From Prevotella sp. (GTDB taxonomy: Bacteria; Bacteroidota; Bacteroidia; Bacteroidales; Bacteroidaceae), in assembly GCA_017615355.1 (NCBI GenBank), contig JAGAAJ010000083.1:1-51770 (forward strand): a stretch of DNA of 51,770 nucleotides, in the 5' to 3' direction. The notes beneath the pieces are model-generated. The model did not search any database. It was not told the DNA's origin and saw only the letters and a list, made by a program, of their open reading frames with translations. Shown in pieces: positions 482 through 27,137 of this stretch. How positions within the stretch are numbered: the first letter of the stretch is position 1; each line of letters opens with the position of its first letter. Both the position numbers and the translations under genes were made by a program.

Positions 482-3400
482 ATGGAACACCTAATTGTCA
501 ACAGTGGAATTCAGTTCATTAGTACGGAGAAGGAATTCAACCCCTCCGAACAGCTGACATTCTCAAACGGACGCACCTTGAAGTATTCCTTCTGCGAGAC
601 GGCGGACTTCTTGTCTGGCGAGCTCATGTTCGACTTGCTCTATTACAACAGTCAGGAGGCTGTCTACATTCCTCTTGGCGAGCTGCGCGGCAGCGACAAG
701 GTAGAGCTCCGTCCCAACGGCCACGAGGAGCTGGACGAGGCGGGCATGCTGAAGATGAAGAAGGATGAATCGACCACTACGTTCTCGGCCTACAAGGATG
801 GCGATGAGGAGATATTCAACATCAACTCCCTGGCCGGCTACCGTGTGAAGTCGCACTTCGACGGCAGTGTGCAGCCCGCCTTTGAGATGCTCCTTGGCAA
901 ATGGCTGCCGATGCCGATGTTCGAGCTCGACATCGACGGGACAACGACCAACGACCCGTTCACATGGTGTCGCGTGAAGATTGAACGCGTGGGTAAGGGC
1001 AGCAAGAAGGACACTGACAGATTCCGTTTCCTGTGGGCTTTCGATACGATGCTCGGCGACAACGATCCTCTGGCCGAACACAATAATATGATTACGTTTG
1101 GCGACGATGCTGACGCCATCACTCACTATAAGCGCCCCTATTTCTACGATGACGAGGGCGAGACGAAGGAGTATCGCATCAGCAACCGCGCCGACCAGTT
1201 GCTCGACTTCATGTCGACAAGCCAGTATTTTTCGGCTTTCTCCGACTACATCTCCTCGCTGCTGGGACAGCTGGACCGCAACGAGTCGCATAAGTACATC
1301 GGCTACTATATCTATCTGGTGAATTTCATCCGCGTGATTGGCGCTGCCCCCGAGGTGATGCTGCACAACAACCAGCGCAAGCAGATCGACGTCGACCTGG
1401 TGATGGACATCGGCAACTCGCGCACCTGCGGCGTGCTCTTCGAAGAGGGTGACTTCACGAAGGCCATGATGCTGGAGATACGCGACATGAGCGACCCGTC
1501 GAAGACGTATGAGAAGTCCTTCGACATGCGCCTGGCATTCCGCAAGGCCGACTTCGGCAATGACATCGTGCTGGACGACGATGTCTTTGAGTGGCATTCG
1601 CTGGTGCGTGTCGGCGACGAGGCCAAGCGTCTTGTGTACCGTTCGCTGGAGGAGGATGGTCTGAGCGAGCGCACCACCAACTACAGCAGCCCGAAACGCT
1701 ATTTGTGGGATTTGAAGCCCTATGACGGACAATGGGAGTTCCTGAACACCGTTGACGACCCCTATAATATCCGCCTGTCTGACAATATTTATGTGCCGGG
1801 CTTGTCCGACCTCTTCGACAGTACTGGCAACTATGTGGGTCCTGACAATGTCAACGAGGGTGGCAGCAATAGCTACTCGCGCTCCTCGCTGATGACGTTT
1901 GTCCTTATCGAGATTCTGCAGCAGGCACAGTCGCAGATCAACAGCATCAAGTTCCGCACGAAGCACGGCAACATGGACTGCCGCCGCCAGCTGCGCAACA
2001 TCATCCTGACCTGTCCAACGGCTATGCCCGTACAGGAGCAGATCAAGCTGCGCCAGTGTGCAGAGGACGCCATTAACGCGCTGAAGCAGGGGAATCCCTC
2101 CTTCGGTGAGCCTACGGTGATTCCCACGTCGCAGTCGCTGAAAGTCAAGGATGACGATGACAATGAGGGCAAGCGCATGTGGAGCTTCGACGAGGCTTCC
2201 TGCTGCCAGCTGGTCTACCTCTATGCCGAGATTGCCCAGCGCTACAGCGGCGAGATACACAAATTCTTTGAGCTGAAGGGCCATGTGCGTCCTGAAGAAA
2301 AGGAAGAAGGCTACGAGGGCAACTCGCTGACTATCGGCTCTATCGACATCGGTGCCGGTACTACCGACGTGATGATATGCTCTTACCAGTGTAAGGGTCA
2401 GGGCCGCAGCCTGCTCACCCCTATCCCACTCTTCTGGGACAGCTTCTATCTGGCAGGCGACGAGATCCTGCACAACATCATCCAGAACCTGGTCATCGAA
2501 GGCAAGGATGTGGGTCTGCCCGACCAGGGTAATATCTTCAGCGCCCTCTATGCCCGTCTGAAGGATATGACCAACGAGGAGCTGCAGAAGCTGCCTTGCC
2601 TTAAAGATAATAATGTATATCAGGGCAAGATGTACGACATCGTGAACGAGATCAACGATGAGCGCCGCGAAGCACTTGTCAAGGCCTTCGCCTCGAACCT
2701 GCTGCGCGACTTCTTCGGCTTTGACAGCGCCATGATGGGCTATAGGGACCGTCGCTGCCGTGTGGACTTCAACACGCAGATCTCTGTGCCCATCGCCCAG
2801 ATGTTTATGGAGCTGCTGCGTCTGAAGCGCCCGTCACGCATCTACACCTATGATGAGATCTTCACCACCCTTGAGCCTGCCGACTACCTGCTCGACTACT
2901 TCGAGCACCACTTCGGCTTCAGCTTCAAGGAGCTGTCTTGGCGTTTTGACCCGCAGGAGGTTGCCGCCATTGTGAAGAATACGATGGAGCCGTTGATGCG
3001 CCAGCTGTCGGTGGTGCTTTACGCCTACCACTGCGACGTCATTGTTCTGGCAGGTCGTCCCTCGTCGCTCGACCCCATCACCGAGCTGTTCATCAAGTAC
3101 ATCCCCATCTCACCCGACAGGCTTATCCGCCTGAACGAGTATCGTGTGGGCACATGGTTCCCCTTCGCCGACGGTCAGGGCTACTTCTACGACCAGAAGT
3201 CGGTGGTGGCTGTTGGCGGCATGGTGGGTCATCTGGCCTCCAGCCTTGGCTTCAACGGCCTCAGCATTGATTTCAGCCGTATGATTAAGACGATGAAGTC
3301 GACAGCCTGCTATATTGGCGATTACAACTCACGTCGTCAACAGGTGCCTACCAGCTATCTGACACCGGGTCAGAGCTCTGCCACCGTGCAGTTCGTAGTA

Positions 3401-3673
3401 TTCCCGTCGTTCATCGGCTGCAAGCAGCTCGACTCCCCACTCTATCAGGCACGACCGCTCTATGCCATCTACAACAACACCAACCATCATGCACTTCGCA
3501 TCACGCTGACGCGCAACTACCACGAAAGCCGCGAAGACCTGGAGGTGGAAGAGGTGATGGACGAGCAGGGCAACACGCTGCCGAAGTCGTCGGTCGACCT
3601 GGTACTGCAGTCCATTACCGACGACGGCAAGTACTGGCTTGACAAGGGCGAGTTTGAACTCTCAGTGAAATAG
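482..3673 (+). CDS. SrfB-like actin-fold ATPase
   Basis: This 1063-aa protein is probably cytoplasmic (no signal peptide or membrane segment seen) and resembles the virulence factor SrfB family. It carries the split nucleotide-binding motifs of the actin/Hsp70 superfamily: a phosphate-1-like DIGNSRTCG near residue 310, a phosphate-2-like DIGAGTTD near 622, and an adenosine-site-like VLAGRPSS near 853 followed by VGGMVGHL. The first 300 residues form a separate beta-rich domain. It is the first gene of an 11-gene operon and lies 49 nt before an SrfC-like gene, the same pairing as srfB-srfC of enterobacteria; no SrfA-like gene is seen. Family knowledge supports nucleotide-dependent assembly or chaperone-like action; the actual role is unknown. 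The ATG at 482 follows an A-rich leader typical of Bacteroidetes. Confidence 0.8.
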   Translation: MEHLIVNSGIQFISTEKEFNPSEQLTFSNGRTLKYSFCETADFLSGELMFDLLYYNSQEAVYIPLGELRGSDKVELRPNGHEELDEAGMLKMKKDESTTTFSAYKDGDEEIFNINSLAGYRVKSHFDGSVQPAFEMLLGKWLPMPMFELDIDGTTTNDPFTWCRVKIERVGKGSKKDTDRFRFLWAFDTMLGDNDPLAEHNNMITFGDDADAITHYKRPYFYDDEGETKEYRISNRADQLLDFMSTSQYFSAFSDYISSLLGQLDRNESHKYIGYYIYLVNFIRVIGAAPEVMLHNNQRKQIDVDLVMDIGNSRTCGVLFEEGDFTKAMMLEIRDMSDPSKTYEKSFDMRLAFRKADFGNDIVLDDDVFEWHSLVRVGDEAKRLVYRSLEEDGLSERTTNYSSPKRYLWDLKPYDGQWEFLNTVDDPYNIRLSDNIYVPGLSDLFDSTGNYVGPDNVNEGGSNSYSRSSLMTFVLIEILQQAQSQINSIKFRTKHGNMDCRRQLRNIILTCPTAMPVQEQIKLRQCAEDAINALKQGNPSFGEPTVIPTSQSLKVKDDDDNEGKRMWSFDEASCCQLVYLYAEIAQRYSGEIHKFFELKGHVRPEEKEEGYEGNSLTIGSIDIGAGTTDVMICSYQCKGQGRSLLTPIPLFWDSFYLAGDEILHNIIQNLVIEGKDVGLPDQGNIFSALYARLKDMTNEELQKLPCLKDNNVYQGKMYDIVNEINDERREALVKAFASNLLRDFFGFDSAMMGYRDRRCRVDFNTQISVPIAQMFMELLRLKRPSRIYTYDEIFTTLEPADYLLDYFEHHFGFSFKELSWRFDPQEVAAIVKNTMEPLMRQLSVVLYAYHCDVIVLAGRPSSLDPITELFIKYIPISPDRLIRLNEYRVGTWFPFADGQGYFYDQKSVVAVGGMVGHLASSLGFNGLSIDFSRMIKTMKSTACYIGDYNSRRQQVPTSYLTPGQSSATVQFVVFPSFIGCKQLDSPLYQARPLYAIYNNTNHHALRITLTRNYHESREDLEVEEVMDEQGNTLPKSSVDLVLQSITDDGKYWLDKGEFELSVK

Positions 3674-3722
3674 TCCCGTATGACAGAGCAACATTCTTAA
3701 ACCAGAAGAAAACCATATTCCC

Positions 3723-6635
3723 ATGATACAGAAGATAATCAAACAGATAGAGGTCATCAATGACTCACTGGCGTGGATCAAGCAACACAAGCCTGAGCAC
3801 TACGAACAGCGCTTCATGCAGTTAGTGGAAGAACGCCGCAAGCTTCGCAAAATAGTCGAAGCAGAGAAAGACAATCCCGCCATGGCCGCCTATGGCAAGA
3901 GCCAGGTGGGAAAGTCCTACCTGATGAGCAACATGCTCCAGCGCCAGGAGGTCCTGGCTGACGGAGGCAAGGTGGTGAAGGCCTTCGAGGTGGAGGACGA
4001 AGAGAGGAAGTACAATTTCATCAACGAGATGAACCCCATCACCCACGACACTGAGGCCACCGGCGTCGTCACCCGTTTTTCTTCCTTCGTGCGCAATCCC
4101 AAGCGTCACGAGCGTAAGTACCCCATACTGATGAAGACGCTCTCCGTGATGGACCTCACACTCTTGCTGTGCGAAGGATACTTCAATGACCTGAAGGATT
4201 CTGACACGCCCGACCGTAACACCATCAACTCGATTGCCGAAGATATCTATGAGAAATACAAGTCATTCCAGCCCGCGACGGCAAATCCCATCACTGCCGA
4301 CGACATGCTGGAGATGAAAGAGTATTTCAAGCACCACATCATGAAAGCGCAGGAGTTCCGTGCCAGCAATTTCTTTGACAAGCTGGCCCTCGTCATCGAA
4401 CGCATTCCTGTATCCGACTATCCGACCATTTTCTCCATTTTCTGGCGCAAGACGGATGACAACAACGACTACCTCACCCCACTCTACCGCCGGTTGCTCG
4501 CCACGATGGGCAAGTTGCAATTCCATAGCGATGTCTATTTCGGAGTTGATGCCGTATTGCACCATGAAGAGAATGAGAACACCATCATGAGCGTACAATG
4601 CCTTGACGGGCTTGGAACAGGCGATACCAGTCATGTGTGTGATGCTCACCTCAAACAAACTGACGGAAGCTTCATCACCGTGCCTGCCATGCTTAAGTGC
4701 GAACTGTCGGCCATCTGCGCCGAGATTGTGGTGCTCATTGGTTCTGACTTCCTCGAGAGCACAGCCAGCTACTGTTTCGATGACATATCCGACAGTTCCG
4801 TGCGCTCAAAACTCACACAGGGCTCCATCAAACTAGACCTGCTGAAGCATACTGACCTGCTCGACTTCCCCGGGGCACGTTCCAGAATGGGCGGAGAGTT
4901 CAACTCACTCAGCGAAGGCAAGGTTCTCACGCGAATGCTTTTGCGTGGAAAGGTAGCCTACCTGTTCAACAAATACTCCGAGTCGCGAGTGGTCAATATC
5001 TTGATGTTCTGTCAGGACAACACACAGTGCGACGTAAACACCATACCCAGCACGCTCAACGATTGGGTGTCGCAATATGTAGGAGCAACGCCCGAAGAGC
5101 GTGCACGCACGCTACAACTTACAGGAGGTATCTCGCCACTATTCTTCGTGGCCACCAAGTTCAACATCACCATGCAAGAAGACCAGAATCCATCTGCAAA
5201 CGGACGAACGAGCATCGATGGACGATGGGGCGAGCGTTTCTCAAAGGTGCTCTACAAGGAGTGCTTCGACGTGGACAGCACCAAGTGGGCCAACAACTGG
5301 ACCAGACCGGGAGAGTTCTTCAAGAACAGCTACCTGCTGCGTGACTTCAAATACTCGGGCATGAAAGGCTCCAAGATTTATGACGGGTTCCGTGAACGCG
5401 GCAAGGAAGACAAACTGCTCGTAGACAGAGAGTACCTCAACCTGCTGCGCTCCACATTCTGCGAGAGCAAGCACACGGAAATGTTCTTCCAAAACCGCGA
5501 GATGGTATGGGATGCCACTGCCTCAATGAACAACGACGGTGCACTATACATTATTGAGCAACTGGCCAAAGTGGCTGCCGCTATGGACAAAACCCGTGAT
5601 TCCCAGTTTGCAGACTACTGCCGAGTGGCAATGGGCAAAGTGCGCGAAATCATGAAGTCCTACCATGTCAGCGACGATATTGGCGAACGTCTGACGGAGA
5701 TGATCAACAATGCCAACGCCATCATCCGTGAGATGGATTTCACCTGCAATGAGGACAACTACTTCTTCGGCCATCTGCTGCAAGCCCTGCAGATTACGGA
5801 GACACGCTGCCTGCAGGTGGTGCACTACATGATTCAAAGCGGTGAGCTAGGTCAGACGAACAACAACTTCAAGGACTATGAAATCATCTTGAAACGATGC
5901 GATAGTTTCCGCGGCTGCAAGCATTTCGACGAGTGCTGGGAGCGACTCATGAAAGTCTACGCCTTCAGGAACAAAGAAGAAGCGGAGAAATTCCTGGAGA
6001 ATCGTAGTATAGACTATCGTCTGCTCTTCTCCGGCACATTCAAGAAGAAGCTGAACTCATGCGTCATTGCCGACCGCGTCTTCGACATCTGGCAAAAGAA
6101 CATCAAGTCAGTGGAATTCATGAACCAGATCCTGGCTAACCAGCTTTTCGACAGCGTAGTAATGTCGACCCTGCTCGATGATATCATCCAGACCAGCAAC
6201 TATATGAAGCTGAACGATCTGATGGCTGAGGCTATTGCCGAATACGTGAATGTCATCAATATCTACACCATCAATGAGAGCCTTGTGGCCGACATCCTGT
6301 CGAGCAAAATCAATCACTTCATCATTGACTTAGGCTATGAACTGCTGACGGCCGACGACCGCGCCAATGCCCGAAAGGTGGCCACACAGTATCATCTGCC
6401 CATATTCGACTACATCGAGAAGGAGCACAAATCTCACTTCGAGGAGGAGGAGCTCACTGCACTCTTCGACGAGCTCACCGACAATCCGAAGGCAATGACA
6501 ACCTCCTTCGAGAACAACTACTACTCTTGGCTGGAATATATGTACGTATCGTTCATCGCCCATCTCGACGTGCCCGACTACGACAAGGAGGCCAATCACC
6601 AATTATCAGAAATTATCAACAACATTGAACAATAA
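3723..6635 (+). CDS. SrfC-like P-loop GTPase
   Basis: This 970-aa soluble protein has a Walker A motif (GKSQVGKS) at about residues 58-65 and a DFPG motif near residue 380 that would serve as the G3/Walker B element. The long separation between them suggests an inserted domain. The remaining C-terminal 550 residues look mostly helical, as in dynamin-like or SrfC-type proteins. Position immediately after the SrfB-like gene is the main support for the SrfC assignment; the sequence is longer than I expect for enterobacterial SrfC. No membrane segment is seen. The next gene starts 3 nt after its stop, so translation is probably coupled. A dynamin-like membrane-remodelling role is possible but is inference. 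Confidence 0.72.
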   Translation: MIQKIIKQIEVINDSLAWIKQHKPEHYEQRFMQLVEERRKLRKIVEAEKDNPAMAAYGKSQVGKSYLMSNMLQRQEVLADGGKVVKAFEVEDEERKYNFINEMNPITHDTEATGVVTRFSSFVRNPKRHERKYPILMKTLSVMDLTLLLCEGYFNDLKDSDTPDRNTINSIAEDIYEKYKSFQPATANPITADDMLEMKEYFKHHIMKAQEFRASNFFDKLALVIERIPVSDYPTIFSIFWRKTDDNNDYLTPLYRRLLATMGKLQFHSDVYFGVDAVLHHEENENTIMSVQCLDGLGTGDTSHVCDAHLKQTDGSFITVPAMLKCELSAICAEIVVLIGSDFLESTASYCFDDISDSSVRSKLTQGSIKLDLLKHTDLLDFPGARSRMGGEFNSLSEGKVLTRMLLRGKVAYLFNKYSESRVVNILMFCQDNTQCDVNTIPSTLNDWVSQYVGATPEERARTLQLTGGISPLFFVATKFNITMQEDQNPSANGRTSIDGRWGERFSKVLYKECFDVDSTKWANNWTRPGEFFKNSYLLRDFKYSGMKGSKIYDGFRERGKEDKLLVDREYLNLLRSTFCESKHTEMFFQNREMVWDATASMNNDGALYIIEQLAKVAAAMDKTRDSQFADYCRVAMGKVREIMKSYHVSDDIGERLTEMINNANAIIREMDFTCNEDNYFFGHLLQALQITETRCLQVVHYMIQSGELGQTNNNFKDYEIILKRCDSFRGCKHFDECWERLMKVYAFRNKEEAEKFLENRSIDYRLLFSGTFKKKLNSCVIADRVFDIWQKNIKSVEFMNQILANQLFDSVVMSTLLDDIIQTSNYMKLNDLMAEAIAEYVNVINIYTINESLVADILSSKINHFIIDLGYELLTADDRANARKVATQYHLPIFDYIEKEHKSHFEEEELTALFDELTDNPKAMTTSFENNYYSWLEYMYVSFIAHLDVPDYDKEANHQLSEIINNIEQ

Positions 6636-6638
6636 GCA

Positions 6639-8606: not shown

Positions 8607-8647
8607 TACGCTACAAAAAGCTTACACATTATTATATTATAGGAGAT

Positions 8648-9643
8648 ATGGCAAGCAACAACGACTCAAACGGCAAGATTACCATTGCCAATATCATAGC
8701 TGTGTTCGGCATCGTGCTGCTCATGGCCCTGTTCTTTTTAGGCTTCCTCTATACGGGCGACACCTTGGGCATCAGCATCCTGAAAGGCGTAGGCTTAGGC
8801 TGTGCCTTCGCACTCCTACTATGGATTATGATCAAGGCCAAGTCAAAGACCAACCTTGAGGACAAAGGCAAGTGGCTCATCACAGAATATACAGCACTTG
8901 CACTGTATGTTGGTTTGGCAGTGGTGAGTTGCAACTGGATGACACAGTTTGTCAACGTCTATGCAGCGAAGAACGACATCAAGACGTCTATCAACAAGGA
9001 TCTTGAGGCCATCAATACTGTGATTGGCGATTTCAAAAGCAATGAGCGCACAAGAATATCGGAACTATCCACCAACCTTAGCACTGCAGTGACTGAGGCA
9101 CGCATGGACAGATCGGTAGAAACGCTGCTATGCGAGTTACTCGGTGTGCGCAACCTTGAAGATGTCAGTGCCTCCAGCATTGACAACAACATCTACCAGC
9201 CATATGCCGACTCCATTGCAGATATCAGCGAAGCTAACGGATGGGATACAGAGATCAGTATATGTGAGAAGGAAATAAGCAAGTGGAACATCCTGCGTCT
9301 ACCACAGTTAATTGAGAGAATCAACGACCTGGGCTCAGACGTCACTGAGAAACTGAATGAATATGCTGAACACATCCCCCATTATGCCGTTCACGACAAT
9401 AGCAACGAGCATGCCTATCATGCAGAGGAAGAATCTGCTGACACCTATGAGGTCGAGGTAGAAACACCAAGCATGGTGAAGAACCTTAAGACCTCGCCTT
9501 GGGGTTATGGTGCCTGTGCGCTTATCCATCTGCTCATCCTGTTCAACTATCTCGTGACCAAACGGAGTAATAAGATTCGCAACCGCAAGACAAATGAAAC
9601 CGCTATGCAAAGCGGCCGCATGTTAAATATCGATAACAACTAA
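8648..9643 (+). CDS. Multi-pass membrane protein of the SrfB/SrfC operon
   Basis: This is a 331-aa protein of no family I recognise. Three hydrophobic segments lie in the first 95 residues, a helical, charged segment with many Ser, Asp and Glu follows, and one more hydrophobic segment lies near the C terminus (in WGYGACALIHLLILF). The four helices would leave a helical domain of about 200 residues on one side of the membrane. I chose the ATG at 8648 because AGGAG lies just before it; an in-frame TTG at 8603 overlaps the protease gene and gives a less likely longer form. The next gene begins 3 nt after the stop. Confidence 0.7.
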   Translation: MASNNDSNGKITIANIIAVFGIVLLMALFFLGFLYTGDTLGISILKGVGLGCAFALLLWIMIKAKSKTNLEDKGKWLITEYTALALYVGLAVVSCNWMTQFVNVYAAKNDIKTSINKDLEAINTVIGDFKSNERTRISELSTNLSTAVTEARMDRSVETLLCELLGVRNLEDVSASSIDNNIYQPYADSIADISEANGWDTEISICEKEISKWNILRLPQLIERINDLGSDVTEKLNEYAEHIPHYAVHDNSNEHAYHAEEESADTYEVEVETPSMVKNLKTSPWGYGACALIHLLILFNYLVTKRSNKIRNRKTNETAMQSGRMLNIDNN

Positions 9644-9646
9644 GAT

Positions 9647-11503
9647 ATGCTCTTAACTCAGAAACAAATCGACGACCTCAACAAAGTCGCTAATAAGCTG
9701 CCCATGCAGCGCCTTATCAGCTACGCTAAAGACGGCACTATCACAGAAGCCGTCCTTAACCAGCTCACTACAATGAACTCTGAGCGCCGCTCACAGTTGC
9801 TGGCTATTATCAACGAGCCTAAGCCCAATCCTGCCGAGCAACAAGAGTGGGCCGCCATTGCACCACGCCTCGCACAGAAGGACGAGTCACTACTACCTAC
9901 CCTCAATGCATATATCAGTCATTGGGAAGGCACCATGCCACTGGGTAATCACATTGATGAGGCACGTGTGGTGATTACTGAAATTAATAGTCTCTTGGAA
10001 ATCAAGGAGTGGGAAGAACTTGACAAAAACAGTGCCGAGGCATTGGCCAACTACCTTCGCAAGCATCCTGGCACCAGCCACCTGCCCGATATTGACAATT
10101 ATCTTTGGGCTACAGTTGAACAAAAGAGTGACGAGCAGCAGAAAAAGACAGCCGCACGCCTTTATCTTCAGATGCTTCCTCAGGGCATGTACCAACAGGA
10201 AGCCAAGGACATTATCGTGCCACCTACATCTAACCCTACACCGTCACCAAATCCAACACCCGGCCCTACACCCAGTCCAATACCTAATCCGACACCTTCA
10301 CCCAAGCCTATAATACCGCCATCCATCAGCTCACTCGACATCGTGGAAACGTGGGACTGGATGGCCGCCAATCCCTACGATGCAAACTACGACGTAGCCT
10401 ACCAGCACTTCATCGAACTGAAGGAAAAAGAGTTTCTCACCATGCGTGAGGAGCTATCGGCCTACTCACCCGACCGTGTATTCTCCCTTTTAGAGAAAGG
10501 CATTATCAGCGAGGACGAACTGCTAAACTCCGGACTGGCTACGCCTGAGTCGCTGAAAATCCTTCGCGAGCGCGATGAAATTATCGAATCGCTGCCTGAC
10601 ATCAATGTCGAGATAGCCAAATGCCGCAAGGAGTGTGCCGAAGACCACACCGATGTATTCCTCTTCGGTATTCCTTCCACAGGCAAGACATGTATCCTGA
10701 TGGGACTTATCGGCTCACCCAACATCAACATCAACACGGTACGCGCCGGCGGTCCCTACGCCTGCGTGTTGGAGCAGTTCCTCGATGCCGGCCTTACCAT
10801 CGGCCAGACGCCCAAAGACTTCGTTGCCACTATCGAGGCTTCCATTCAGGACGGCAAGAACAGACACCTGCTCAACCTGGTGGAAATGGCTGGTGAGGAT
10901 TTCGCTTTCAAGATCGCCGACAACGAGGAAGGTGTCGTGTCCTTTGAGGACATCGGCGCTGGAGCTACCCAGCTATTGTGCAACAACAACAAGAAGTCGT
11001 TCTTCATCATTGTCGACCCAACTGCCAAGCGTGTAGCCTTCAACCATCTTGTGAATGAGACCGATGCCGAGGGTAATGTCCGTACTTATCTGGTACGCAA
11101 GAACGTCAATCAGAAAATCATACTCAAACGTCTGGTCGACCTGCTGGCACAGCCCGAGAACAAGAAGATACTGAAGAACGTAGACTCAATCAGCATCGTC
11201 ATTTCAAAAGCAGATCTTCTTGGCAATGAACAAGAGCGCGAAGATGAGGCTTATCGCCGTTTCATGGACCAGCATAAGAACATCATCAGCCCGCTCGTCG
11301 AGCTTTGCCGGGAGAATGGCATTAATGCCTCCACCAACGGTCAGCCCATGCTCTATACCTTCAGCCTTGGTCGCTTCTACGTGGGCGGTGTCTACCAATA
11401 TGACTCCACCGATGCCAACAAGCTCATAGAGGTGCTGAAAGGCAATACCGAGATTACCAAGAAAGGCAGTTTCGGCGGCAAGTTCAAAGACATCTTCAAT
11501 TAA
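9647..11503 (+). CDS. P-loop GTPase with proline-rich linker
   Basis: In this 618-aa protein, residues 1-185 form a helical domain and residues 186-222 a Pro/Thr/Ser/Asn-rich spacer made of repeated NPTPSP-like units. After a short helical region comes a GTPase-like domain. Its Walker A is GIPSTGKT at residues 341-348, a G3/Walker B-like EMAGED sits near 417, and a G4-like SKAD at 520-523 replaces the classical NKxD. It therefore resembles TRAFAC-type GTPases of bacterial multi-component systems rather than housekeeping GTPases. No membrane segment is present. A second P-loop GTPase in the same operon as the SrfC-like one suggests two nucleotide-driven steps. A frame-consistent ATG follows the upstream stop by 3 nt. 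Confidence 0.75.
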   Translation: MLLTQKQIDDLNKVANKLPMQRLISYAKDGTITEAVLNQLTTMNSERRSQLLAIINEPKPNPAEQQEWAAIAPRLAQKDESLLPTLNAYISHWEGTMPLGNHIDEARVVITEINSLLEIKEWEELDKNSAEALANYLRKHPGTSHLPDIDNYLWATVEQKSDEQQKKTAARLYLQMLPQGMYQQEAKDIIVPPTSNPTPSPNPTPGPTPSPIPNPTPSPKPIIPPSISSLDIVETWDWMAANPYDANYDVAYQHFIELKEKEFLTMREELSAYSPDRVFSLLEKGIISEDELLNSGLATPESLKILRERDEIIESLPDINVEIAKCRKECAEDHTDVFLFGIPSTGKTCILMGLIGSPNININTVRAGGPYACVLEQFLDAGLTIGQTPKDFVATIEASIQDGKNRHLLNLVEMAGEDFAFKIADNEEGVVSFEDIGAGATQLLCNNNKKSFFIIVDPTAKRVAFNHLVNETDAEGNVRTYLVRKNVNQKIILKRLVDLLAQPENKKILKNVDSISIVISKADLLGNEQEREDEAYRRFMDQHKNIISPLVELCRENGINASTNGQPMLYTFSLGRFYVGGVYQYDSTDANKLIEVLKGNTEITKKGSFGGKFKDIFN

Positions 11504-11545
11504 GACACTGACAGCAAGCCCACGCCATCCGCGGGCAACTGACAA

Positions 11546-12676
11546 ATGGAAAATAACAAAATATCCTTAGCCATCTTTGGCAACCAAAACAGCAACAGCG
11601 GTTTCCAGCCCCTTTACTGGATCAACAACCCGCCGCAGCAATTGGAGAACATCGTGCCACCAGGCATGGATGAGAATCCTTATTTCTTCACACTGCAAGT
11701 GTTGCCTGCACACACACAGTACACGCTGATTCACAACCGTGTGAGCAGCTATATGTCGGTAAGACCAGGTGTGCTGAAGATGGCTATCGCCATTCCTAAA
11801 GGCTACACTATACGTGACGGCGTCAGTCCGCTGGAGGTGCTCCTCGATGTTCGTCAACAGTTTATCGAGACCTGCATGACTTTGCGCGATACGCAGACAG
11901 ATGCCTACAACTATAAGGAGAAACTGGCTGATCCTGACATCTTTGTCAAGATTGTGGACAGCTATCAACTGGTGCCCGACAGACGACCGCACTTTCCGAT
12001 GAAAGGCACAGAGGATGCCGTGATGCTACTCGATGACATGGCCATCTCAGAGCTTTTTGTGGCTCCGCAACATCCTGAGTTTCAACAATTCAAAAGCATC
12101 GTCATTGCAAACAAGGGCAATGTATCCGTCTACAAAACCCAGTTCAATGGAATCATGGCTTCCGCAATTCCGGCAAAGGCTGAAACACCGACGGAAAAAA
12201 CAATCTCATCTAGAGAGTCAACCGCTCCTACCACCAAGGCAAGCGTTTCCAAGGACAAATCTGCACAGCAGAAGAAATTCCTGATAATACTACTGTGCAT
12301 CCTACTCATCATTGGCGGTGCAGTTTTCCTTTTGAGGCCAAAATCTGACAAGAAAGCAAAGAAGGAAGATGTGATAGAAATAGCAGAGAATAACCAAAAG
12401 GACGATGTGGATGATGATATAGAGGCGAATAAAGAGGAAGCTGATCAAGAAATCAGCGACATTGAGGATTTGTCTGACATGGAAATAGACAAAAAGGAAA
12501 TGGAAGACTCTAAGCAGCCCGTCAACGCCACTAACGCCATCCCAGCAGGAGACGAGCCCGCGGCTGTATCTGAGTCACACAGGCATGTTGACAAGCCACG
12601 CCAAGAGGAGAAAAGAGAACGCATTACCGTTGTAGATAACAAGGACGGCAAACCTACAGCAGAAGATGACCGCTAA
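11546..12676 (+). CDS. Single-pass membrane protein with acidic tail
   Basis: This 376-aa protein is not recognised. Residues 1-205 look like a globular domain without a signal peptide, then comes a Ser/Thr/Lys/Ala-rich linker. One strong membrane helix (about 247-266, in LIILLCILLIIGGAVFLL) follows, and the last 110 residues are very acidic and Lys-rich, with no predicted fold. The topology suggests a cytoplasmic N-terminal domain that could dock on the ATPase or GTPases of the operon, and a tail on the far side of the membrane. It follows the GTPase gene by 42 nt on the same strand. Confidence 0.68.
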   Translation: MENNKISLAIFGNQNSNSGFQPLYWINNPPQQLENIVPPGMDENPYFFTLQVLPAHTQYTLIHNRVSSYMSVRPGVLKMAIAIPKGYTIRDGVSPLEVLLDVRQQFIETCMTLRDTQTDAYNYKEKLADPDIFVKIVDSYQLVPDRRPHFPMKGTEDAVMLLDDMAISELFVAPQHPEFQQFKSIVIANKGNVSVYKTQFNGIMASAIPAKAETPTEKTISSRESTAPTTKASVSKDKSAQQKKFLIILLCILLIIGGAVFLLRPKSDKKAKKEDVIEIAENNQKDDVDDDIEANKEEADQEISDIEDLSDMEIDKKEMEDSKQPVNATNAIPAGDEPAAVSESHRHVDKPRQEEKRERITVVDNKDGKPTAEDDR

Positions 12677-12703
12677 AATCTATTAAAAATTGAGCAAAGA
12701 CGT

Positions 12704-13534
12704 ATGAAAGCATTGAAACTCATTATTATAGCCATCATCATGGCAGGAGCATTAGGCGGACTGATGTTCCTTAGTCTTGGTGGCGATAGCGAAGAGAAAT
12801 CCACGCCGGAGCAGGAGGCTCTATACAGCAAGCTCAAGACAAAGATTGAAGACCACTGGGACGACGGAGGCTGGAGCCTGTCAAAATTCAACGATGACTA
12901 CATCATGCTCAACAAGCAAAAAGACGAACTAGGCAGACAGTACTTCACTTCGCTCAGCGACCAGCTCAATACCGTAGGTAACAGAGCCCTCTATCAGGAC
13001 TTAAAGGCCGCCTATGCAAGCCCAACCTGTAAGCGGACTGACATCGAACCTTTCATGTCAGACATGGACCGTTTCCTACAGAAAGCACCCGGATTCGACA
13101 AGGACAAACTGATAAAGGAGATGCAGGCCACCTACACCCTCTATAACCAAGTATTGGCACTCGCAACAACCAACTTCACTCGCACACCATCCTTCAACAT
13201 GGCCAGCAACAGTTTCTCACCTTCATTCCATACCTTCAAGAATGCGCAACTGAAGCTGGCACGTGACATTCAAGGCTCCGAATACTTCGACAACATCGAA
13301 AAGATCAACGAGGTGAAAGAGGCACTCAACAGTGTGCCGTCGCGTCTTGATGATGCTGAGAATGTCTTCATGAACAAATTGGCCAATCTTATTGTGAACG
13401 CCTACGAGACAGACACACTCAGCGACCGCCGCAGTCGCTTTGTCAGTATCCGCAAAAAATACAATGACGAGTTCAACCCGAAGAGCAACTCACGCATAGA
13501 GCTCTACCTGCGCTCGCTGCCTCTCTCGGATTGA
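12704..13534 (+). CDS. Membrane-anchored helical protein, unknown
   Basis: In this 276-aa protein an N-terminal hydrophobic segment (about residues 5-25, Gly/Ala-rich with no clear signal-peptidase site) probably anchors a helical domain in the periplasm. No catalytic motif or known family is apparent. It lies 27 nt after the acidic-tail membrane protein and 22 nt before the next exported protein, inside the SrfB/SrfC operon. It may be a structural or adaptor subunit; this is inference from context only. Confidence 0.65.
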   Translation: MKALKLIIIAIIMAGALGGLMFLSLGGDSEEKSTPEQEALYSKLKTKIEDHWDDGGWSLSKFNDDYIMLNKQKDELGRQYFTSLSDQLNTVGNRALYQDLKAAYASPTCKRTDIEPFMSDMDRFLQKAPGFDKDKLIKEMQATYTLYNQVLALATTNFTRTPSFNMASNSFSPSFHTFKNAQLKLARDIQGSEYFDNIEKINEVKEALNSVPSRLDDAENVFMNKLANLIVNAYETDTLSDRRSRFVSIRKKYNDEFNPKSNSRIELYLRSLPLSD

Positions 13535-13556
13535 TGAACCAGATAGTTTAGAAGTT

Positions 13557-14513
13557 ATGAGAATAAAGTTAATCATACTGCCACTGCTTTTTTTCAGCGT
13601 AAGCCTTTGTGCTTCTGCTCAAGACGACTCTGCGGATAATAGCCAGCAAAAGCCGAAGAAGGAAAACGCCAAAAAGGCTTTAAAGGAGCTGCAGAAGCAA
13701 TACGAGCAACTCCAGAAAGAGCACTTGTTGCTTGAGGAAGCCTACAAGACGCTGCAGGCAGAGGATAGTACGATACAAGCAGATATACGAGCACAAGAAG
13801 AGGCACGTCGGCAACAGGAAAGCTATTACCAGCAATGCCGTCAGAACCTGTATCAGGAATATACCGAATACCTTGATGTGCCCTTCTCGACCATCTCGTT
13901 GCAGAAGATTAGCAACATCAAGGACTTCGCAGAACGCTATGCAGAGATGGACAGCAATGCTCCTACCCTACTGGCACGCGCCAACGCCTGTCTGAAACAT
14001 AAACAGGACTACGATGACATGATTACCTTGTTGTCAAAACCCTATAATGCTACCGACATTAAGAAAAACCGCGACAAGCTGCTTATCTTACGCATCATGG
14101 TCGATGAGAACAGATGGGACGAGCTGGCTATGAGTAAGAGTCAGTGGCAGGAAACAGACAGCATCGACGTTTTCTACGCCCGCTATCAGCCAGGCCTCAA
14201 ATGGCTGCAGGGCGTGATGAAAAAATGCGAGGAACAATACAGAAGCGACGGTCTAAGCGCCAGCAACCGTACCGACGTGGTGCTGAGCAAAGACATCCGT
14301 CAAGACATCGTAAACGATGCGGACAAACGACAGATTGAGAGCGTTAGCCGACACATCAGTCCGCAAGGCAACATTGCCGACTACATCCTACTCATCCCGT
14401 GGTTGCGTGAGCGCTACAATATCTTCATCAGCGAGTCCAACCCGCTGAAACCCTCGGAAAAGACGCGCAAAGCCATGAAGGAAGTGTTAGATATCAATAC
14501 CGGATCACATTAA
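13557..14513 (+). CDS. Exported coiled-coil protein
   Basis: The 318-aa protein starts with a signal peptide (hydrophobic residues 4-19, cleavage likely after SLCASA). A long Lys/Glu/Gln-rich coiled coil spans about residues 30-95 and is followed by a helical domain. No enzyme motif is seen. Within the SrfB/SrfC operon it would be a periplasmic component; the coiled coil suggests oligomerisation or a spacer role. It ends 14 nt before the next gene. Confidence 0.68.
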   Translation: MRIKLIILPLLFFSVSLCASAQDDSADNSQQKPKKENAKKALKELQKQYEQLQKEHLLLEEAYKTLQAEDSTIQADIRAQEEARRQQESYYQQCRQNLYQEYTEYLDVPFSTISLQKISNIKDFAERYAEMDSNAPTLLARANACLKHKQDYDDMITLLSKPYNATDIKKNRDKLLILRIMVDENRWDELAMSKSQWQETDSIDVFYARYQPGLKWLQGVMKKCEEQYRSDGLSASNRTDVVLSKDIRQDIVNDADKRQIESVSRHISPQGNIADYILLIPWLRERYNIFISESNPLKPSEKTRKAMKEVLDINTGSH

Positions 14514-14527
14514 ATACTGAACACTAT

Positions 14528-15880
14528 ATGGAAATAAAAAATGTCAGAGTCAATGAGATTCACTGGTCTATCGGCTGGAATGCATCTCAAGAAGCCAACA
14601 AGCGCCTTAAGGACAAGATTGGCGAGACAAGCAAGTATTTCGCCCAGCTAAAGGTAGGCAATGCTACCTACAACTGGATGGTTGACACCGTGGGAAAGTG
14701 GCGTCCCATGGGTATGGCACCCGACAGCGACAAGGCCGTCATCATGGAAAAGGCAGAGGAAATCCGACAGGAGGTCTTTGACAAGTTACCCGGTGAGGAC
14801 AGTCTGGCTACAAAGATCTGTCAGGTGCCCAACTATGAGGAGTACATCTTCTATAAAGACAACGGCGACAATACCCTCGACGTCATCATCACCGGCTGGG
14901 GTTTCCATAATTTCAAGAAAGCCGGTCCATTCATCGAGACCTGGCCTCCACGTCCCATCAAGCACACCACCACCATCGCCTTTGTCATCGACGGTGTGCG
15001 CCAGCCACAGCGTCCCTTCTCTATCGTCACACCGAAGATGCAGAAGCCTGATGTCACCGACGAGCAGGGCATTCGCAGCTACAAGGAATACGCTGGTTTG
15101 AACATCACCATTATCGACGATGCCACACAGCGCCAATTCAACTTCACCACTGAGGATAAGGACACAGAGCTGGAGTTCGACGTCACTACGAAGGCGACTG
15201 TCACCGTGCGCGCAACTATTGACGGCGAGCCTCTCGACGGTGAGACGGTAGGCATCGACTACGACGGACAGCACTTCGACGTGCAGCTTACCAACGGCGA
15301 AGCCACCCTCTCTGACCTCTCATATAAGAGCGGAATCAGCTGCAAGGCCACCCTTCGCGATGAGGAGCGCAGCGAGCCGCTCAGTGGCAACACCGCCACC
15401 GTTATCACCTTCGATTTCAAAACGCCGCCTGTCATCGAAGAACCGGTTGTCGAAGAAGAGCCGGTTGTTGAAGAAGAGCCAGAGAAGGAACCCGTCATAG
15501 CCACCATCACAGTGCTTGACGCACAGGGCCAGCCCATGAAGAACGCGCAGTTCCGTCTGCAGCAAGGCGAAAAGCTTCTCGAAGGACAGCTCGACGAGCA
15601 GGGTGCTGCACAGTTCATGGTGGAGACCTTTGCCATCGACCAGCCTTTGCAGGCACATATCACCACTGAGGATCAGCATCAGATAGAGCCCATCGAGTTC
15701 ACGCTCGAGGCCGATGAGAAAGAATACGTATTGCAGGAGAATGCTCCCAAGAGCAGCGGCAGCATCCTCGGCTTCCTCGTATTCCTGCTTATCCTAGCAG
15801 CCCTTGCCGCTTTGGTTATCTTTGCACTGAAGCCCGGCACGGAAGAATTAACAAAAATCATCAACAAAAACTTTTTCTAA
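14528..15880 (+). CDS. Tail-anchored protein with Ig-like repeat domains
   Basis: The 450-aa protein has no signal peptide. Residues 1-190 form an unrecognised domain rich in Trp and Tyr. Two beta domains follow, of the carboxypeptidase-regulatory/Ig-like type (about 210-300 and 325-405), separated by an acidic E-E-P-V-V repeat linker. A strong membrane helix (about 417-440) lies near the C terminus. The arrangement of a C-terminal anchor and a large N-terminal part without export signal suggests a cytoplasm-facing tail-anchored protein, although Ig-like folds are more usual outside the cell. It is followed by the next gene after 3 nt. Confidence 0.68.
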   Translation: MEIKNVRVNEIHWSIGWNASQEANKRLKDKIGETSKYFAQLKVGNATYNWMVDTVGKWRPMGMAPDSDKAVIMEKAEEIRQEVFDKLPGEDSLATKICQVPNYEEYIFYKDNGDNTLDVIITGWGFHNFKKAGPFIETWPPRPIKHTTTIAFVIDGVRQPQRPFSIVTPKMQKPDVTDEQGIRSYKEYAGLNITIIDDATQRQFNFTTEDKDTELEFDVTTKATVTVRATIDGEPLDGETVGIDYDGQHFDVQLTNGEATLSDLSYKSGISCKATLRDEERSEPLSGNTATVITFDFKTPPVIEEPVVEEEPVVEEEPEKEPVIATITVLDAQGQPMKNAQFRLQQGEKLLEGQLDEQGAAQFMVETFAIDQPLQAHITTEDQHQIEPIEFTLEADEKEYVLQENAPKSSGSILGFLVFLLILAALAALVIFALKPGTEELTKIINKNFF

Positions 15881-15883
15881 GCT

Positions 15884-16183
15884 ATGGATCACCAAACCAT
15901 CAAGTTCATCTCAGAGAACATGCTATACTTGCTGGCCACGCCATGCATCCTTACTTTCCTGCTCTTTGCCTGGGACAAGCACCTGGCACACTACCAGCGT
16001 AGCCGCGTACCCGAAGCCGTGCTGTTTTTCTTCTGCTTCCTCTACGGAGCCTTCGGTGGTCTTTGCGGCATGATCTTCTTCCGTCACAAGACAAAACACA
16101 TGTCGTTTAAGATTATCGTACCTTTGCTGGCTATTATCCAAATTGCCGCCATCGTCTATTTCAAAGTTCAAATCGAAAAATAG
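15884..16183 (+). CDS. DUF1294 family small membrane protein
   Basis: This 99-aa protein has three hydrophobic segments and matches DUF1294 by pattern: DK following the first helix, an R-x-P-E motif, a GG-x-x-G turn in the second helix and the RHKTKH segment before the third. The function of the family is unknown. Its place between two anchored Ig-like proteins in the SrfB/SrfC operon is unusual, because DUF1294 proteins commonly occur as solitary genes. Start and stop are separated from the neighbours by 3 and 9 nt. Confidence 0.8.
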   Translation: MDHQTIKFISENMLYLLATPCILTFLLFAWDKHLAHYQRSRVPEAVLFFFCFLYGAFGGLCGMIFFRHKTKHMSFKIIVPLLAIIQIAAIVYFKVQIEK

Positions 16184-16192
16184 CATCATACC

Positions 16193-16963
16193 ATGAAAGT
16201 ATTAAGTTTTATTCTATTTTCCATCTTCGCCGGACTGATTATTGCCCTTCTACTTCTTCAGCCGAAAAAGCCGGCAGAGCCGGAAGAGATGGATGCCAAG
16301 ATTGTGGTGGTTGATGAAGACACCGAGGAGCCTATTGAAGGTGTCAAGATAAAGATCACGACCTCCGATGACTCAGAGGTTTCACTCATCACCGACGAGA
16401 ACGGCGAATGTGCCTTCACCTACACCGACAGCGATGCACAGATTACCATCCTCAGAGCCACCAAATCAGGCTATGAGCGTGTAGAGATAGAAGACTATGA
16501 CCTGTCAAAGTTTGAGGACGATGACCTCGTCATTCCCATGAAGAAACAGAACATGACGAACCGCGGACAACAGATTGGAGCCAGCGGTGCGCTGAAGATT
16601 ACTTTGATGTGGGACGATCCAAGCGTTGACCTCGACCTACATGTCATTGAACCCAACGGTTTCGAGATTTGTTATCTAGGTGGACACGATGGACAGATGC
16701 ACGACCCCGACACTGGCGGCAAACTCGACGTTGACTGGCAGCCGAACAACAACAGTCCAGAGAACATAGGCGAAAATGCCGTATGGCAGACATCCCCGCG
16801 AGGCACTTATAAGGCTAGTGTCGTCTTCTACGGTCCTGAGGGCGTCGGTCCCGTCGACTGCACTGTTGTCGTTTACCAGGAGAACCAGCCTGAGCAGACG
16901 TACACACTAACCCTCAACGGACAAGGCGACACAAAGGAAATTCCTGATATAGTGGTACCATAA
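16193..16963 (+). CDS. Membrane-anchored protein with DUF2135-like domain
   Basis: The 256-aa protein has an N-terminal hydrophobic segment (about residues 3-23) that anchors it or directs export. A carboxypeptidase-regulatory-like beta domain (about 33-115) contains the typical V-x-D-x-x-T-x-x-P-x-x-G-V start. A C-terminal domain resembles DUF2135, with the LMWDDPSVDLDLHVIEPNG signature and a later SPRGTYKASVVFYG segment. DUF2135 domains usually occur in secreted or surface-exposed proteins. This is the last gene of the SrfB/SrfC operon; the 48 nt to transketolase hold no clear terminator, so read-through is possible. Confidence 0.75.
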   Translation: MKVLSFILFSIFAGLIIALLLLQPKKPAEPEEMDAKIVVVDEDTEEPIEGVKIKITTSDDSEVSLITDENGECAFTYTDSDAQITILRATKSGYERVEIEDYDLSKFEDDDLVIPMKKQNMTNRGQQIGASGALKITLMWDDPSVDLDLHVIEPNGFEICYLGGHDGQMHDPDTGGKLDVDWQPNNNSPENIGENAVWQTSPRGTYKASVVFYGPEGVGPVDCTVVVYQENQPEQTYTLTLNGQGDTKEIPDIVVP

Positions 16964-26664: not shown

Positions 26665-26714
26665 TGTCAAAAAATTAGTTGATGTTTTTTAACATGCCTT
26701 GGCAACCAAAAAAG

Positions 26715-26787
<73 letters not shown>

Positions 26788-26815
26788 AACTGCCAAAAAA
26801 AAAGTGGTAGAAATG

Positions 26816-26899
26816 TGAAGAGGAGGAGACTCGAACTCCCACGTCGCAATTGACACTACCCCCTCAAAGTAGCGCGTCTACCAATTCCGCCACCTCTCC
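26816..26899 (-). tRNA. tRNA-Leu (GAG)
   Basis: An 84-nt class II tRNA. Acceptor GGAGAGG pairs with CCTCTTC, anticodon stem CTACT/GGTAG encloses TTGAGGG (anticodon GAG), and it has a long variable arm and T-arm GAGTTCGAGTCTC. CCA is not encoded. Confidence 0.92.

Positions 26900-27064: not shown

Positions 27065-27137
<73 letters not shown>

What the first reader, a model, noticed from the sequence alone, without database searches (positions are those of the whole stretch)
482..16963. Eleven-gene SrfB/SrfC operon: candidate undescribed NTP-driven envelope machine
The sequence shows one uninterrupted + strand operon with gaps of 3-49 nt. It encodes an actin-fold ATPase (SrfB-like), a P-loop GTPase (SrfC-like), a membrane-anchored subtilase with an intact triad, a second P-loop GTPase, and seven membrane, anchored or exported proteins, among them DUF1294 and DUF2135-like members. 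SrfB/SrfC are known as a poorly understood virulence-factor pair in enterobacteria. A version with a protease, a second GTPase and an envelope-spanning set is not something I recognise. The layout suggests cytoplasmic sensing or assembly coupled to a periplasmic or surface effect.
Basis: partly seen in the sequence, partly recalled or inferred. Interest (0 to 1): 0.88.

Follow-up and report, generated by a model that had tools for sequence, protein, structure and literature searches.

The report
Protease-bearing SrfABC envelope operon
Eleven neighbouring bacterial genes encode a little-known membrane machine, kept together as a set in related bacteria, in which a poorly understood trio once called virulence factors has gained a built-in protein-cutting enzyme and an extra molecular switch.

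Summary
The 11-gene + strand operon (482-16963) is real. SrfB (PF07520, 3e-173) and SrfC (PF10139, 3e-106) are secure. In 20 of 24 Bacteroidota loci with enough sequence past SrfC the order SrfB-SrfC-subtilase-g4-GTPase is kept, SrfB identity falling to about 30%; a Runella plasmid has the same layout.

Main new result: the subtilase is SrfA. Proteobacterial SrfA aligns end to end with the subtilase family (hhalign P 99.7, E 2.6e-25), the S8 domain lying between SrfA's membrane helix and its C-terminal domain. The triad is intact in 25 of 25. The GTPase family is DO-GTPase-related, without GAP1. In 7 of 17 non-Bacteroidota loci of a capped scan SrfC is followed by vWA and TagTSR-like genes, a module that elsewhere reports outer-membrane damage.

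Best reading: a modular trans-envelope NTPase machine responding to envelope state, acting in Bacteroidota through a periplasmic protease. Composition is well supported; function is inferred. No association with the nearby tubulin-like operon and no defence-island signal. No structure could be predicted. New variant of a known kind.

The parts
482..3673 (+). g1 SrfB, 1063 aa, ASKHA-type (actin/Hsp70) ATPase by motifs DIGNSRT (309), DIGAGTTD (622), LAGRPS (857)
   Evidence: PF07520 E 3.3e-173; most motif residues invariant or nearly so in alignments of 17 and 15; fold not tested
3723..6635 (+). g2 SrfC, 970 aa, P-loop GTPase (GKSQVGKS, DFPGARSR)
   Evidence: PF10139 E 3.3e-106; G58, S60, Q61, G63, K64, S65 and D381, P383, G384, R386 invariant in 15 of 15
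6639..8606 (+). g3 SrfA-type protein with an inserted subtilase: short cytoplasmic N-end, TM 29-47, propeptide-like stretch (by eye), S8 domain 236-497, SrfA C-terminal domain
   Evidence: PF00082 E 1.6e-35; SrfA profile vs family P 99.7; SrfA-C profile built without the window or its clade hits g3 at 2.1e-7, best shuffle 1.5; triad 25 of 25; PDB subtilisins, best 1.3e-18
8648..9643 (+). g4 membrane protein; in 14 of 17 family members four TM segments pass the scan (three near the N-end, one after a ~190-aa loop), two in the window's; partner of g5
   Evidence: hydropathy; found by HMM before g5, in 17 loci directly and in 3 after one inserted gene
9647..11503 (+). g5 second GTPase: N-terminal TPR-like repeats, C-terminal TRAFAC-type GTPase domain related to DO-GTPase1/2
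   Evidence: alignment; DO-GTPase1 in 6 of 15 members (best 6.1e-6) and DO-GTPase2 in 6 of 15 (best 1.3e-5), window member itself no such hit; TPR region CpoB E 3.5e-5
11546..12676 (+). g6 single-TM protein; 376 aa here against 722-762 aa in four clade I relatives
   Evidence: no significant family in Pfam, NCBIfam or PADLOC
12704..13534 (+). g7 exported or N-terminally anchored protein
   Evidence: g7 vs g7b P 99.5
13557..14513 (+). g8 exported protein, probably coiled-coil (by eye)
14528..15880 (+). g9 SrfA-N-like domain + Ig/MG4-like repeat + C-terminal TM
   Evidence: MG4 E 9.1e-7; SrfA-N vs g9 family P 89.7; window g9 1.6e-4 (best shuffle 0.073) with relatives' g9 in the profile, not found without them
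15884..16183 (+). g10 DUF1294 small membrane protein
   Evidence: PF06961 E 1.3e-19; after g9 in L130, L131 and L132, just before SrfB in L053-L057
16193..16963 (+). g11 anchored exported protein: CarboxypepD_reg-like + DUF2135-like domain
   Evidence: CarboxypepD_reg E 7.7e-7, just under its cut-off; last domain hit by a profile of three SrfA C-terminal domains at 1e-11, 0 of 550 shuffles

Best explanation
This is the Bacteroidota form of an SrfABC machine. SHOWN: SrfB and SrfC are encoded with an SrfA whose outer part carries an intact subtilase, and with a conserved membrane protein plus a DO-GTPase-related switch. INFERRED: SrfB (ATP) and SrfC (GTP) form a cytoplasmic core at the inner membrane; SrfA-type adaptors (cytoplasmic SrfA-N domain, one TM, exchangeable periplasmic domains) join that core to the periplasm; exported proteins g7, g8 and g11 sense or scaffold envelope state. 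INFERRED: in Proteobacteria the sensing module is vWA + TagTSR-like proteins, which elsewhere report outer-membrane damage; in Bacteroidota it is replaced by g4-g5 and the protease. On a signal, an NTP-driven rearrangement through the SrfA helix lets the tethered subtilase precursor mature and cut periplasmic or surface proteins at the affected site.
For: Family profiles. Order SrfB-SrfC-S8-g4-g5 in 20 of 24 Bacteroidota loci with enough sequence, plus the window; an equivalent on a Runella plasmid, by annotation and by my reading of g4/g5. SrfC in 31 of 33 SrfB-positive genomes; of the two misses, G109 has SrfB at a contig edge with a SrfC fragment and G272 a shortened SrfB. g5 GTPase domain in 18 of 19 SrfB-positive against 7 of 282 SrfB-negative genomes, p 2e-22 not corrected for relatedness. 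SrfA = subtilase protein end to end; DUF2135-like domain in place of S8 in G441, and at the end of SrfA in Sinorhizobium and Tistlia; SrfA-N shared by SrfA, S8-SrfA, SrfA-vWA and g9 sets, no other set matching it above P 15 among those compared. Triad 25 of 25. Tag-like modules, whole or in part, after SrfC in 7 of 17 non-Bacteroidota scan loci and in two plasmids that I picked. Sheath gene VipB in 0 of 33 and T6SSiii TssC in 4 of 33 SrfB-positive Bacteroidota genomes, so SrfB does not go with T6SS there. Published: SrfA, SrfB and SrfC of Xenorhabdus co-precipitate (PMC6950479, abstract and passages); TagQRST-PpkA reports outer-membrane damage (PMC11881912, passages).
Against: No experiment bears on the Bacteroidota version. 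No structure could be made, so neither the SrfB fold nor SrfC's class is shown. The window's g3 lacks the SrfA-N domain; here only g9 carries a weak version, which the strict profile misses. T6SS absence was tested in Bacteroidota genomes only, whereas the Tag-bearing loci are nearly all proteobacterial. SrfB and SrfC lie on different contigs in at least G174 and G057, without SrfC beside SrfB. 'Sensor' for the Tag genes is borrowed from T6SS, and TagTSR identity rests on Pfam classes and published neighbourhood names. g4-g5 also occur without SrfB. Which element senses and which acts is a guess; precursor release rests on a stretch before the protease that looks conserved by eye and that Pfam does not recognise.
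Confidence: 0.45

Rival explanations
1. A membrane-remodelling or cytoskeletal system: SrfB polymerises like an actin relative and SrfC works as a large membrane GTPase to shape or repair the inner membrane, in the way proposed for the FtsZl1-vWA-GTPase system; the protease trims partners.
For: ASKHA-type motifs plus two GTPases plus many anchored proteins. A Tubulin_2 operon of the FtsZl1 kind lies in the same window (PMC2875224, first two of five parts of the text). PDB profile hits of SrfC include GBP1 at E 0.24, not significant.
Against: Tubulin_2 and SrfB do not associate: both in 3 of 301 genomes, 2.5 expected, p 0.72. No dynamin or filament signature was shown.
Confidence: 0.2
2. An anti-phage or other conflict system: the DO-GTPase-related switch and SrfB are a triggered chaperone-type module and the protease is the effector.
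For: g5 family is related to DO-GTPase1/2 of the GTPase-centric conflict systems, some of which include HSP70 or tubulin (PMC7159879, one section and passages). Patchy spread, own genome counted each time: 19 of 301, 14 of 198 and 2 of 395 genomes. SrfB relatives on 142 plasmid records. Runella copy sits directly after a BREX cluster on a plasmid.
Against: GAP1-M in 0 of 33 SrfB-positive genomes. PADLOC on ten of the eleven proteins: a generic subtilase model (5.7e-12) and weak hits only. Flanking genes of family loci: 53 PADLOC families among 132 proteins, the 25 rows shown each hit by one protein and naming 4 systems; control regions 3 families among 93 proteins; 4 of 132 against 3 of 93 gives p 1. 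The window's SrfB has no match in 50,697 phage records.
Confidence: 0.17
3. A secreted or injected toxin complex, as SrfABC is described in Xenorhabdus, acting on eukaryotic cells.
For: SrfA, SrfB and SrfC of X. stockiae harm cultured cells (PMC6950479, abstract and passages); the operon was first found in Salmonella (PMC3608642, passages).
Against: SrfB and SrfC show no N-terminal hydrophobic segment and keep nucleotide motifs; SrfA has a membrane helix; SrfABC operons of one form or another occur in Runella, Fluviicola, Methylococcus and Terasakiella (their free-living habit is recalled except for Runella, source freshwater); further anchored or exported partners are kept with it.
Confidence: 0.08
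4. Merely adjacent genes with unrelated roles.
For: g4-g5 also occur without SrfB in another operon (L125-L127), and SrfB/SrfC can lie apart.
Against: Order kept in 20 of 24 loci across wide divergence; SrfA homology ties the protease to SrfB/SrfC.
Confidence: 0.03

Closest known systems
SrfABC operon of enterobacteria (SrfA family NF040486, SrfB PF07520, SrfC PF10139)
   Same: SrfB and SrfC over Pfam cut-offs; SrfA homologous end to end to the subtilase protein family; SrfA-SrfB-SrfC without further Srf-type genes in 5 loci here
   Different: Gene order SrfB-SrfC-SrfA instead of SrfA-SrfB-SrfC; SrfA carries a subtilase; g4, DO-GTPase-related g5 and g6-g11 added
SrfABC + TagQRST/PpkA neighbourhood of host-associated Deltaproteobacteria (PMC3608642)
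   Same: SrfB/SrfC core with a periplasmic multi-gene module; a like module found here, whole or in part, after SrfC in 7 of 17 non-Bacteroidota scan loci and two plasmids
   Different: The window's operon has no vWA, ABC transporter or FGE-like gene; it has protease, g4 and g5
DO-GTPase (GTPase-centric) conflict systems (PMC7159879)
   Same: GTPase family related to DO-GTPase1/2 with a glutamate at the Walker B position, TM partners; some of those systems include an HSP70
   Different: No GAP1 (GAP1-M 0 of 33 genomes); SrfB is not named in that paper's main text
FtsZl1/Tubulin_2-vWA-GTPase predicted membrane-remodelling system (PMC2875224)
   Same: Large cytoskeletal-superfamily NTPase with GTPase and anchored proteins
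   Different: Tubulin rather than ASKHA; no genome-level association
T6SSiii TssR
   Same: TssR-like vWA protein (E 3e-24) upstream of SrfB in one Bacteroidota locus, L070
   Different: That genome (G056) has no TssC or VipB hit

Membership tests
SrfABC system | SrfB (PF07520) present over cut-off | tested here: met
   3.3e-173
SrfABC system | SrfC (PF10139) next to SrfB | tested here: met
   3.3e-106, 49 nt after SrfB
SrfABC system | SrfA present | tested here: met
   g3 family vs SrfA P 99.7, E 2.6e-25; window g3 C-terminus 2.1e-7. Window g3 lacks the SrfA-N domain; NF040486 not over cut-off in any of ten window proteins scanned, only a 0.15 hit in g6
SrfABC system | SrfA, SrfB and SrfC form one complex | not testable with these tools
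   reported for Xenorhabdus (PMC6950479, passages)
Subtilase S8 | Asp-His-Ser triad and oxyanion Asn | tested here: met
   25 of 25 sequences incl. window
DO-GTPase system | DO-GTPase domain | tested here: inconclusive
   6 of 15 family members hit DO-GTPase1 and 6 of 15 DO-GTPase2, best 6e-6; window member none
DO-GTPase system | GAP1 protein | tested here: not met
   GAP1-M 0 of 33 SrfB-positive genomes; other GAP1 domains not searched in genomes
FtsZl1 system | Tubulin_2 protein in the operon | tested here: not met
   No tubulin match among the eleven proteins; Tubulin_2 lies 20 kb away, not associated
Type VI secretion with TagQRST pathway | Sheath genes in the genome | tested here: inconclusive
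   Own genome has TssC on another contig; 4 of 33 SrfB-positive have TssC, 0 of 33 VipB
Known anti-phage defence system | PADLOC-DB 2023 models match core genes | tested here: not met
   Generic subtilase model 5.7e-12 and weak hits; g10 was not scanned
ASKHA (actin/Hsp70) fold for SrfB | Phosphate-1, phosphate-2 and adenosine motifs; fold | tested here: inconclusive
   Motifs conserved (motif names recalled); PDB profile best E 1.1 FtsA; fold prediction unavailable

The most novel reading that the evidence does not exclude
SrfABC is not a toxin but the core of a widespread class of modular trans-envelope alarm machines: an ATPase-GTPase pair in the cytoplasm reads interchangeable periplasmic modules (vWA-TagTSR, TssR-like, DUF2135-like, subtilase) through SrfA-type adaptors, and in Bacteroidota it fires a tethered protease precursor at sites of envelope attack, with a DO-GTPase-type switch setting the threshold. 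It would be a regulated periplasmic protease weapon or repair tool driven by cytoplasmic NTP cycles.
Probability: 0.2. Interest if true: 0.85.

Novelty: new variant of a known kind. Interest (0 to 1): 0.64.

Why it matters
SrfB/SrfC carry the name virulence factor, yet a paper that studied their neighbourhood calls their function unclear (PMC3608642, passage). Showing that SrfA is a modular membrane protein that can carry a protease, and that the same core is coupled to modules of the envelope-damage type elsewhere, turns an orphan label into a testable proposal: a trans-envelope NTPase machine. Domain exchange on SrfA gives direct experiments (catalytic serine mutant, domain swap, pull-down with SrfB/SrfC). 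In nine full-text searches on Srf terms (open-licence PMC only, lists capped) no listed title or abstract start pointed to a subtilase SrfA or to this operon; I did not read those papers beyond the ones cited.

Tried and rejected
Actin-tubulin partnership with the operon at 37437-50281: rejected, SrfB 19 of 301, Tubulin_2 39 of 301 over cut-off (45 of 301 at E 0.001), both 3 (I take the 301-genome draws to be the same set because the handles agree).

Defence island: flank test not positive. The flank table lists only 25 of 53 PADLOC families, so its count is a lower bound; the set was 132 of 134 ORFs picked. The Pfam scan of the same flanks showed mostly ordinary genes in the 25 of 95 families listed.

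T6SS partner: not supported in the Bacteroidota genomes.

Phage origin: no phage record.

First HMM rounds drifted: profiles for g3, g9 and g11 hit each other and SrfA. Those labels were not used for the counts; the overlap was resolved by hhalign on hand-picked sets. The strict SrfA-N profile without any g9 of the window's kind does not find the window's g9. The set counts (19 of 25 S8-SrfA and so on) come from a profile built from four of the five sets that it finds, so they match by construction except for SrfA-vWA.

g5 as an exclusive marker: the whole-length profile hit 120 of 301 genomes; in 95 of these the hit does not reach the GTPase domain. I counted only hits that cover it.

PDB searches gave no useful structure for SrfB, SrfC or g5's GTPase domain. 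Promoter and terminator scans are at chance level.

Rows dropped: the SrfB tree of 51 rows leaves out L081 (same contig as L070), L094 (same as L065), the fragments L047, L051, L065, L098, and L100. Its S8 label needs 5 changes because rows marked 'other' lie among the S8 rows. The 20 of 24 count is out of 35 distinct Bacteroidota loci beside the window; 11 end too soon after SrfC or have no SrfC beside SrfB: L047, L051, L055, L065, L066, L067, L069, L071, L076, L077, L100.

Full report
WHAT IS THERE. The window is one contig (C15) of a 3.25-Mb draft genome. A relative in its family (G272) has an 8,915-base contig that matches in length and ORFs one of a Phocaeicola MAG (L065 and L094), so the family is most likely Bacteroidaceae (name by my knowledge). 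The eleven genes lie head to tail with gaps of 3 to 49 nt. Pfam gives SrfB 3.3e-173, Virul_Fac (SrfC) 3.3e-106, Peptidase_S8 1.6e-35, MG4 9.1e-7 in g9 and DUF1294 1.3e-19 in g10, and CarboxypepD_reg 7.7e-7, just below its cut-off, in g11. NCBIfam gives nothing over its cut-offs for the ten proteins scanned.

IT IS ONE CONSERVED SYSTEM. SrfB was found, the own genome included each time, in 19 of 301 genomes of the family, 14 of 198 of the order and 2 of 395 of the phylum: patchy. Nineteen family loci were fetched and twelve from the order. Of 35 distinct Bacteroidota loci beside the window, 24 have sequence reaching well past SrfC. Twenty of these keep SrfB-SrfC-S8-g4-g5 in that order, L063, L064 and L079 with one gene between g4 and g5, L078 with two between SrfC and S8, L052 with doubled SrfC and g5. 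Two (L070, L075) have S8-SrfA but no g4/g5 in view, one (L062) has an SrfA without S8 plus g5, and one (L068) has none of these. In the window's own clade DUF1294 and a g11 homologue follow g9 in L130 and L131, so the whole set recurs there; L132 shows g9 and DUF1294. In clade II (L053-L057) DUF1294 lies just before SrfB instead. The transketolase gene that follows in the window was not found after the operon in L130-L132. The Runella sp. SP2 plasmid pSP2_1 carries annotated SrfB, SrfC and S8 peptidase, then a 312-aa membrane protein and a 401-aa P-loop GTPase (my reading), directly after a BREX cluster. SrfC is present in 31 of 33 SrfB-positive genomes. Against strict linkage: in G174 and G057 SrfB and SrfC lie on different contigs and SrfB has no SrfC next to it.

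THE SUBTILASE IS SrfA. In 666 pairwise profile comparisons of 37 protein sets, ten proteobacterial SrfA proteins matched the 25-member subtilase family with P 99.7, E 2.6e-25 over 448 columns, SrfA 6-461 against 4-895. So the order is SrfA-N, helix, inserted S8 domain, SrfA C-terminal domain. Domain by domain: SrfA-N to S8 N-end P 99.1; SrfA-C to clade II S8 C-end P 98.4, to clade I only P 61.8. A SrfA-C profile made without the window or its clade hits the window's g3 at 2.1e-7, first among 561 sequences of which 550 are shuffles, best shuffle 1.5. The triad and oxyanion residues are conserved in 25 of 25. The window's g3 lacks SrfA-N. A weak SrfA-N lies in g9 (family P 89.7; window 1.6e-4 only when relatives' g9 are in the profile, not found by the strict one). 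In one search the SrfA-N sets (SrfA, S8-SrfA, g9, g9b, SrfA-vWA) matched one another at P 88 to 99 wherever a match passed P 15, and no other compared set matched them. The outer end of SrfA is exchangeable: G441 (L062) has a DUF2135-like domain where others have S8, and SrfA of Sinorhizobium (L091) and Tistlia (L093) ends in the same domain. A profile of these three hits the window's g11 at 1e-11 with no shuffle hit. Pfam's DUF2135 touches only L091, at 0.063.

THE SECOND GTPASE. g5 has a TPR-like N-part (CpoB 3.5e-5) and a GTPase domain with G-x-P-S-S-G-K-T, E-M-A-G-E and T-K-x-D consensus motifs. Six of 15 members hit DO-GTPase1 and six DO-GTPase2 (best 6e-6); the window member does not. 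DO-GTPases are described as TRAFAC GTPases with a Walker B glutamate in GTPase-centric conflict systems, some with HSP70 and tubulin (PMC7159879: section 27 and passages). Their partner GAP1 was not seen (GAP1-M 0 of 33). The GTPase domain occurs in 18 of 19 SrfB-positive and 7 of 282 SrfB-negative genomes (Fisher 2e-22, relatedness not corrected). Three of the seven (L125-L127) show g4-g5 together in a different operon, in L126 with a lipase-like gene and three large proteins without Pfam match. So g4-g5 is a portable pair.

OTHER SrfABC FORMS. Five enterobacterial ones (L082, L084, L085, L086, L090) are SrfA-SrfB-SrfC without the modules below; two of them have an ABC ATPase on the other strand nearby. 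In L087, L088, L089, L092 and L097 SrfC is followed by a TM protein, a vWA protein, an ABC ATPase, an FtsX-type permease and an FGE-type protein; L093 and L099 have part of this; L095 ends after vWA; L091 has none; L083 and L098 are short. In L096 (Phycisphaerae) SrfB and SrfC are split by three genes and a P-loop GTPase follows. Plasmids of Cereibacter and Enterobacter sp. 638 have the module annotated. Pfam on L092 confirms VWA, ABC_tran, FtsX and FGE-sulfatase. The same neighbourhood was reported as SrfABC with TagQ-T and PpkA in host-associated Deltaproteobacteria, function unclear (PMC3608642, passages). TagQRST-PpkA passes outer-membrane damage on to the H1-T6SS of Pseudomonas aeruginosa (PMC11881912, passages). 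One Bacteroidota locus, L070, has TssR-like vWA (3e-24) and an ABC gene before SrfB together with S8-SrfA; its genome has no VipB or TssC hit. In the SrfB tree (51 rows, quick method, SH-aLRT only; many rows of unlike letter make-up and L096 on a very long branch) the 33 Bacteroidota rows form one side of a branch with support 100, and all 26 S8-type rows are among them; the 7 others there are mostly cut short.

HOW IT MAY WORK. Shown: composition, conservation, homology of the protease to SrfA, intact catalytic and nucleotide motifs. From the literature: the three Srf proteins of Xenorhabdus co-precipitate (PMC6950479, abstract and passages). Inferred: SrfB and SrfC are a cytoplasmic NTPase core; SrfA-type adaptors cross the membrane; exchangeable periplasmic domains decide input or output; in Bacteroidota the output is proteolysis, gated by g5 through g4. 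A stretch before the S8 domain looks like a propeptide (by eye on sequences printed), which would let the protease part from its anchor; Pfam does not recognise it. Rivals are membrane remodelling, conflict or defence, toxin, and chance adjacency; evidence for and against is given in their sections.

LIMITS. Many loci come from fragmented genomes. Gene calls are mechanical ORFs. The literature library is open-licence only. Names such as TagT, TagS and TagR for the proteobacterial genes rest on Pfam classes and the published neighbourhood, not on alignment to the Pseudomonas proteins.

Noticed in passing
window 37437-50281 +: A second multi-gene cluster led by a Tubulin_2/GYF_2 protein (FtsZl1 type), GC 43% against 54% at 17-34 kb, with exported Sel1-repeat proteins, a zinc-ribbon-like anchored protein and a PEGA/LRR_5 protein; three of its exported proteins share an N-terminal domain. 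Not associated with SrfB across genomes.
   Followed up: partly
L154 10058-19308: In G379, downstream of the srf operon, a 480-aa protein with a tubulin-like GGTGSR motif precedes a 1171-aa protein and, further on, a 252-aa protein with a MotB-like start (by eye); may be another tubulin-type system.
   Followed up: no
L125, L126, L127: The g4-g5 pair without SrfB/SrfC, followed by large proteins (about 1020, 535 and 832 aa in L126); those three and the first of L127 have no Pfam match; in L126 a lipase-like gene precedes.
   Followed up: partly
L062 9943-11847: SrfA-type protein with InlB-like repeats and a DUF2135-like domain in the place of the subtilase.
   Followed up: yes
L052: In G353 SrfC and g5 each occur twice in tandem, one copy shorter.
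   Followed up: no
L053 8168-10954: In G228 the S8-SrfA reads as two ORFs (775 and 130 aa), so it may be interrupted.
   Followed up: no
L134 1-16718: BREX cluster on Runella plasmid pSP2_1 directly before the srf operon.
   Followed up: partly
L068 13185-14501: A DUF444 gene directly before SrfB in G036, where SrfC is followed by unrelated genes; no homologue of it among the ORFs of the loci searched.
   Followed up: partly
L067, L068, L070, L075, L076: A protein of 325-341 aa, coiled-coil by eye, sits between SrfB and SrfC in one Bacteroidales group.
   Followed up: no
family genomes: The TPR-like repeats of g5 recur in 95 further genomes in which the hit does not reach the GTPase domain.
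   Followed up: no
L137-L161 flanks: Single flanking proteins match PADLOC models PDC-S05, PDC-S23, AriA and PD-T4-6; which genes they are was not shown.
   Followed up: no
window 34531-36708 -: VapE-like/BT4734-like protein of the mobile-element type between a tRNA cluster (26714-27137) and the tubulin operon.
   Followed up: no
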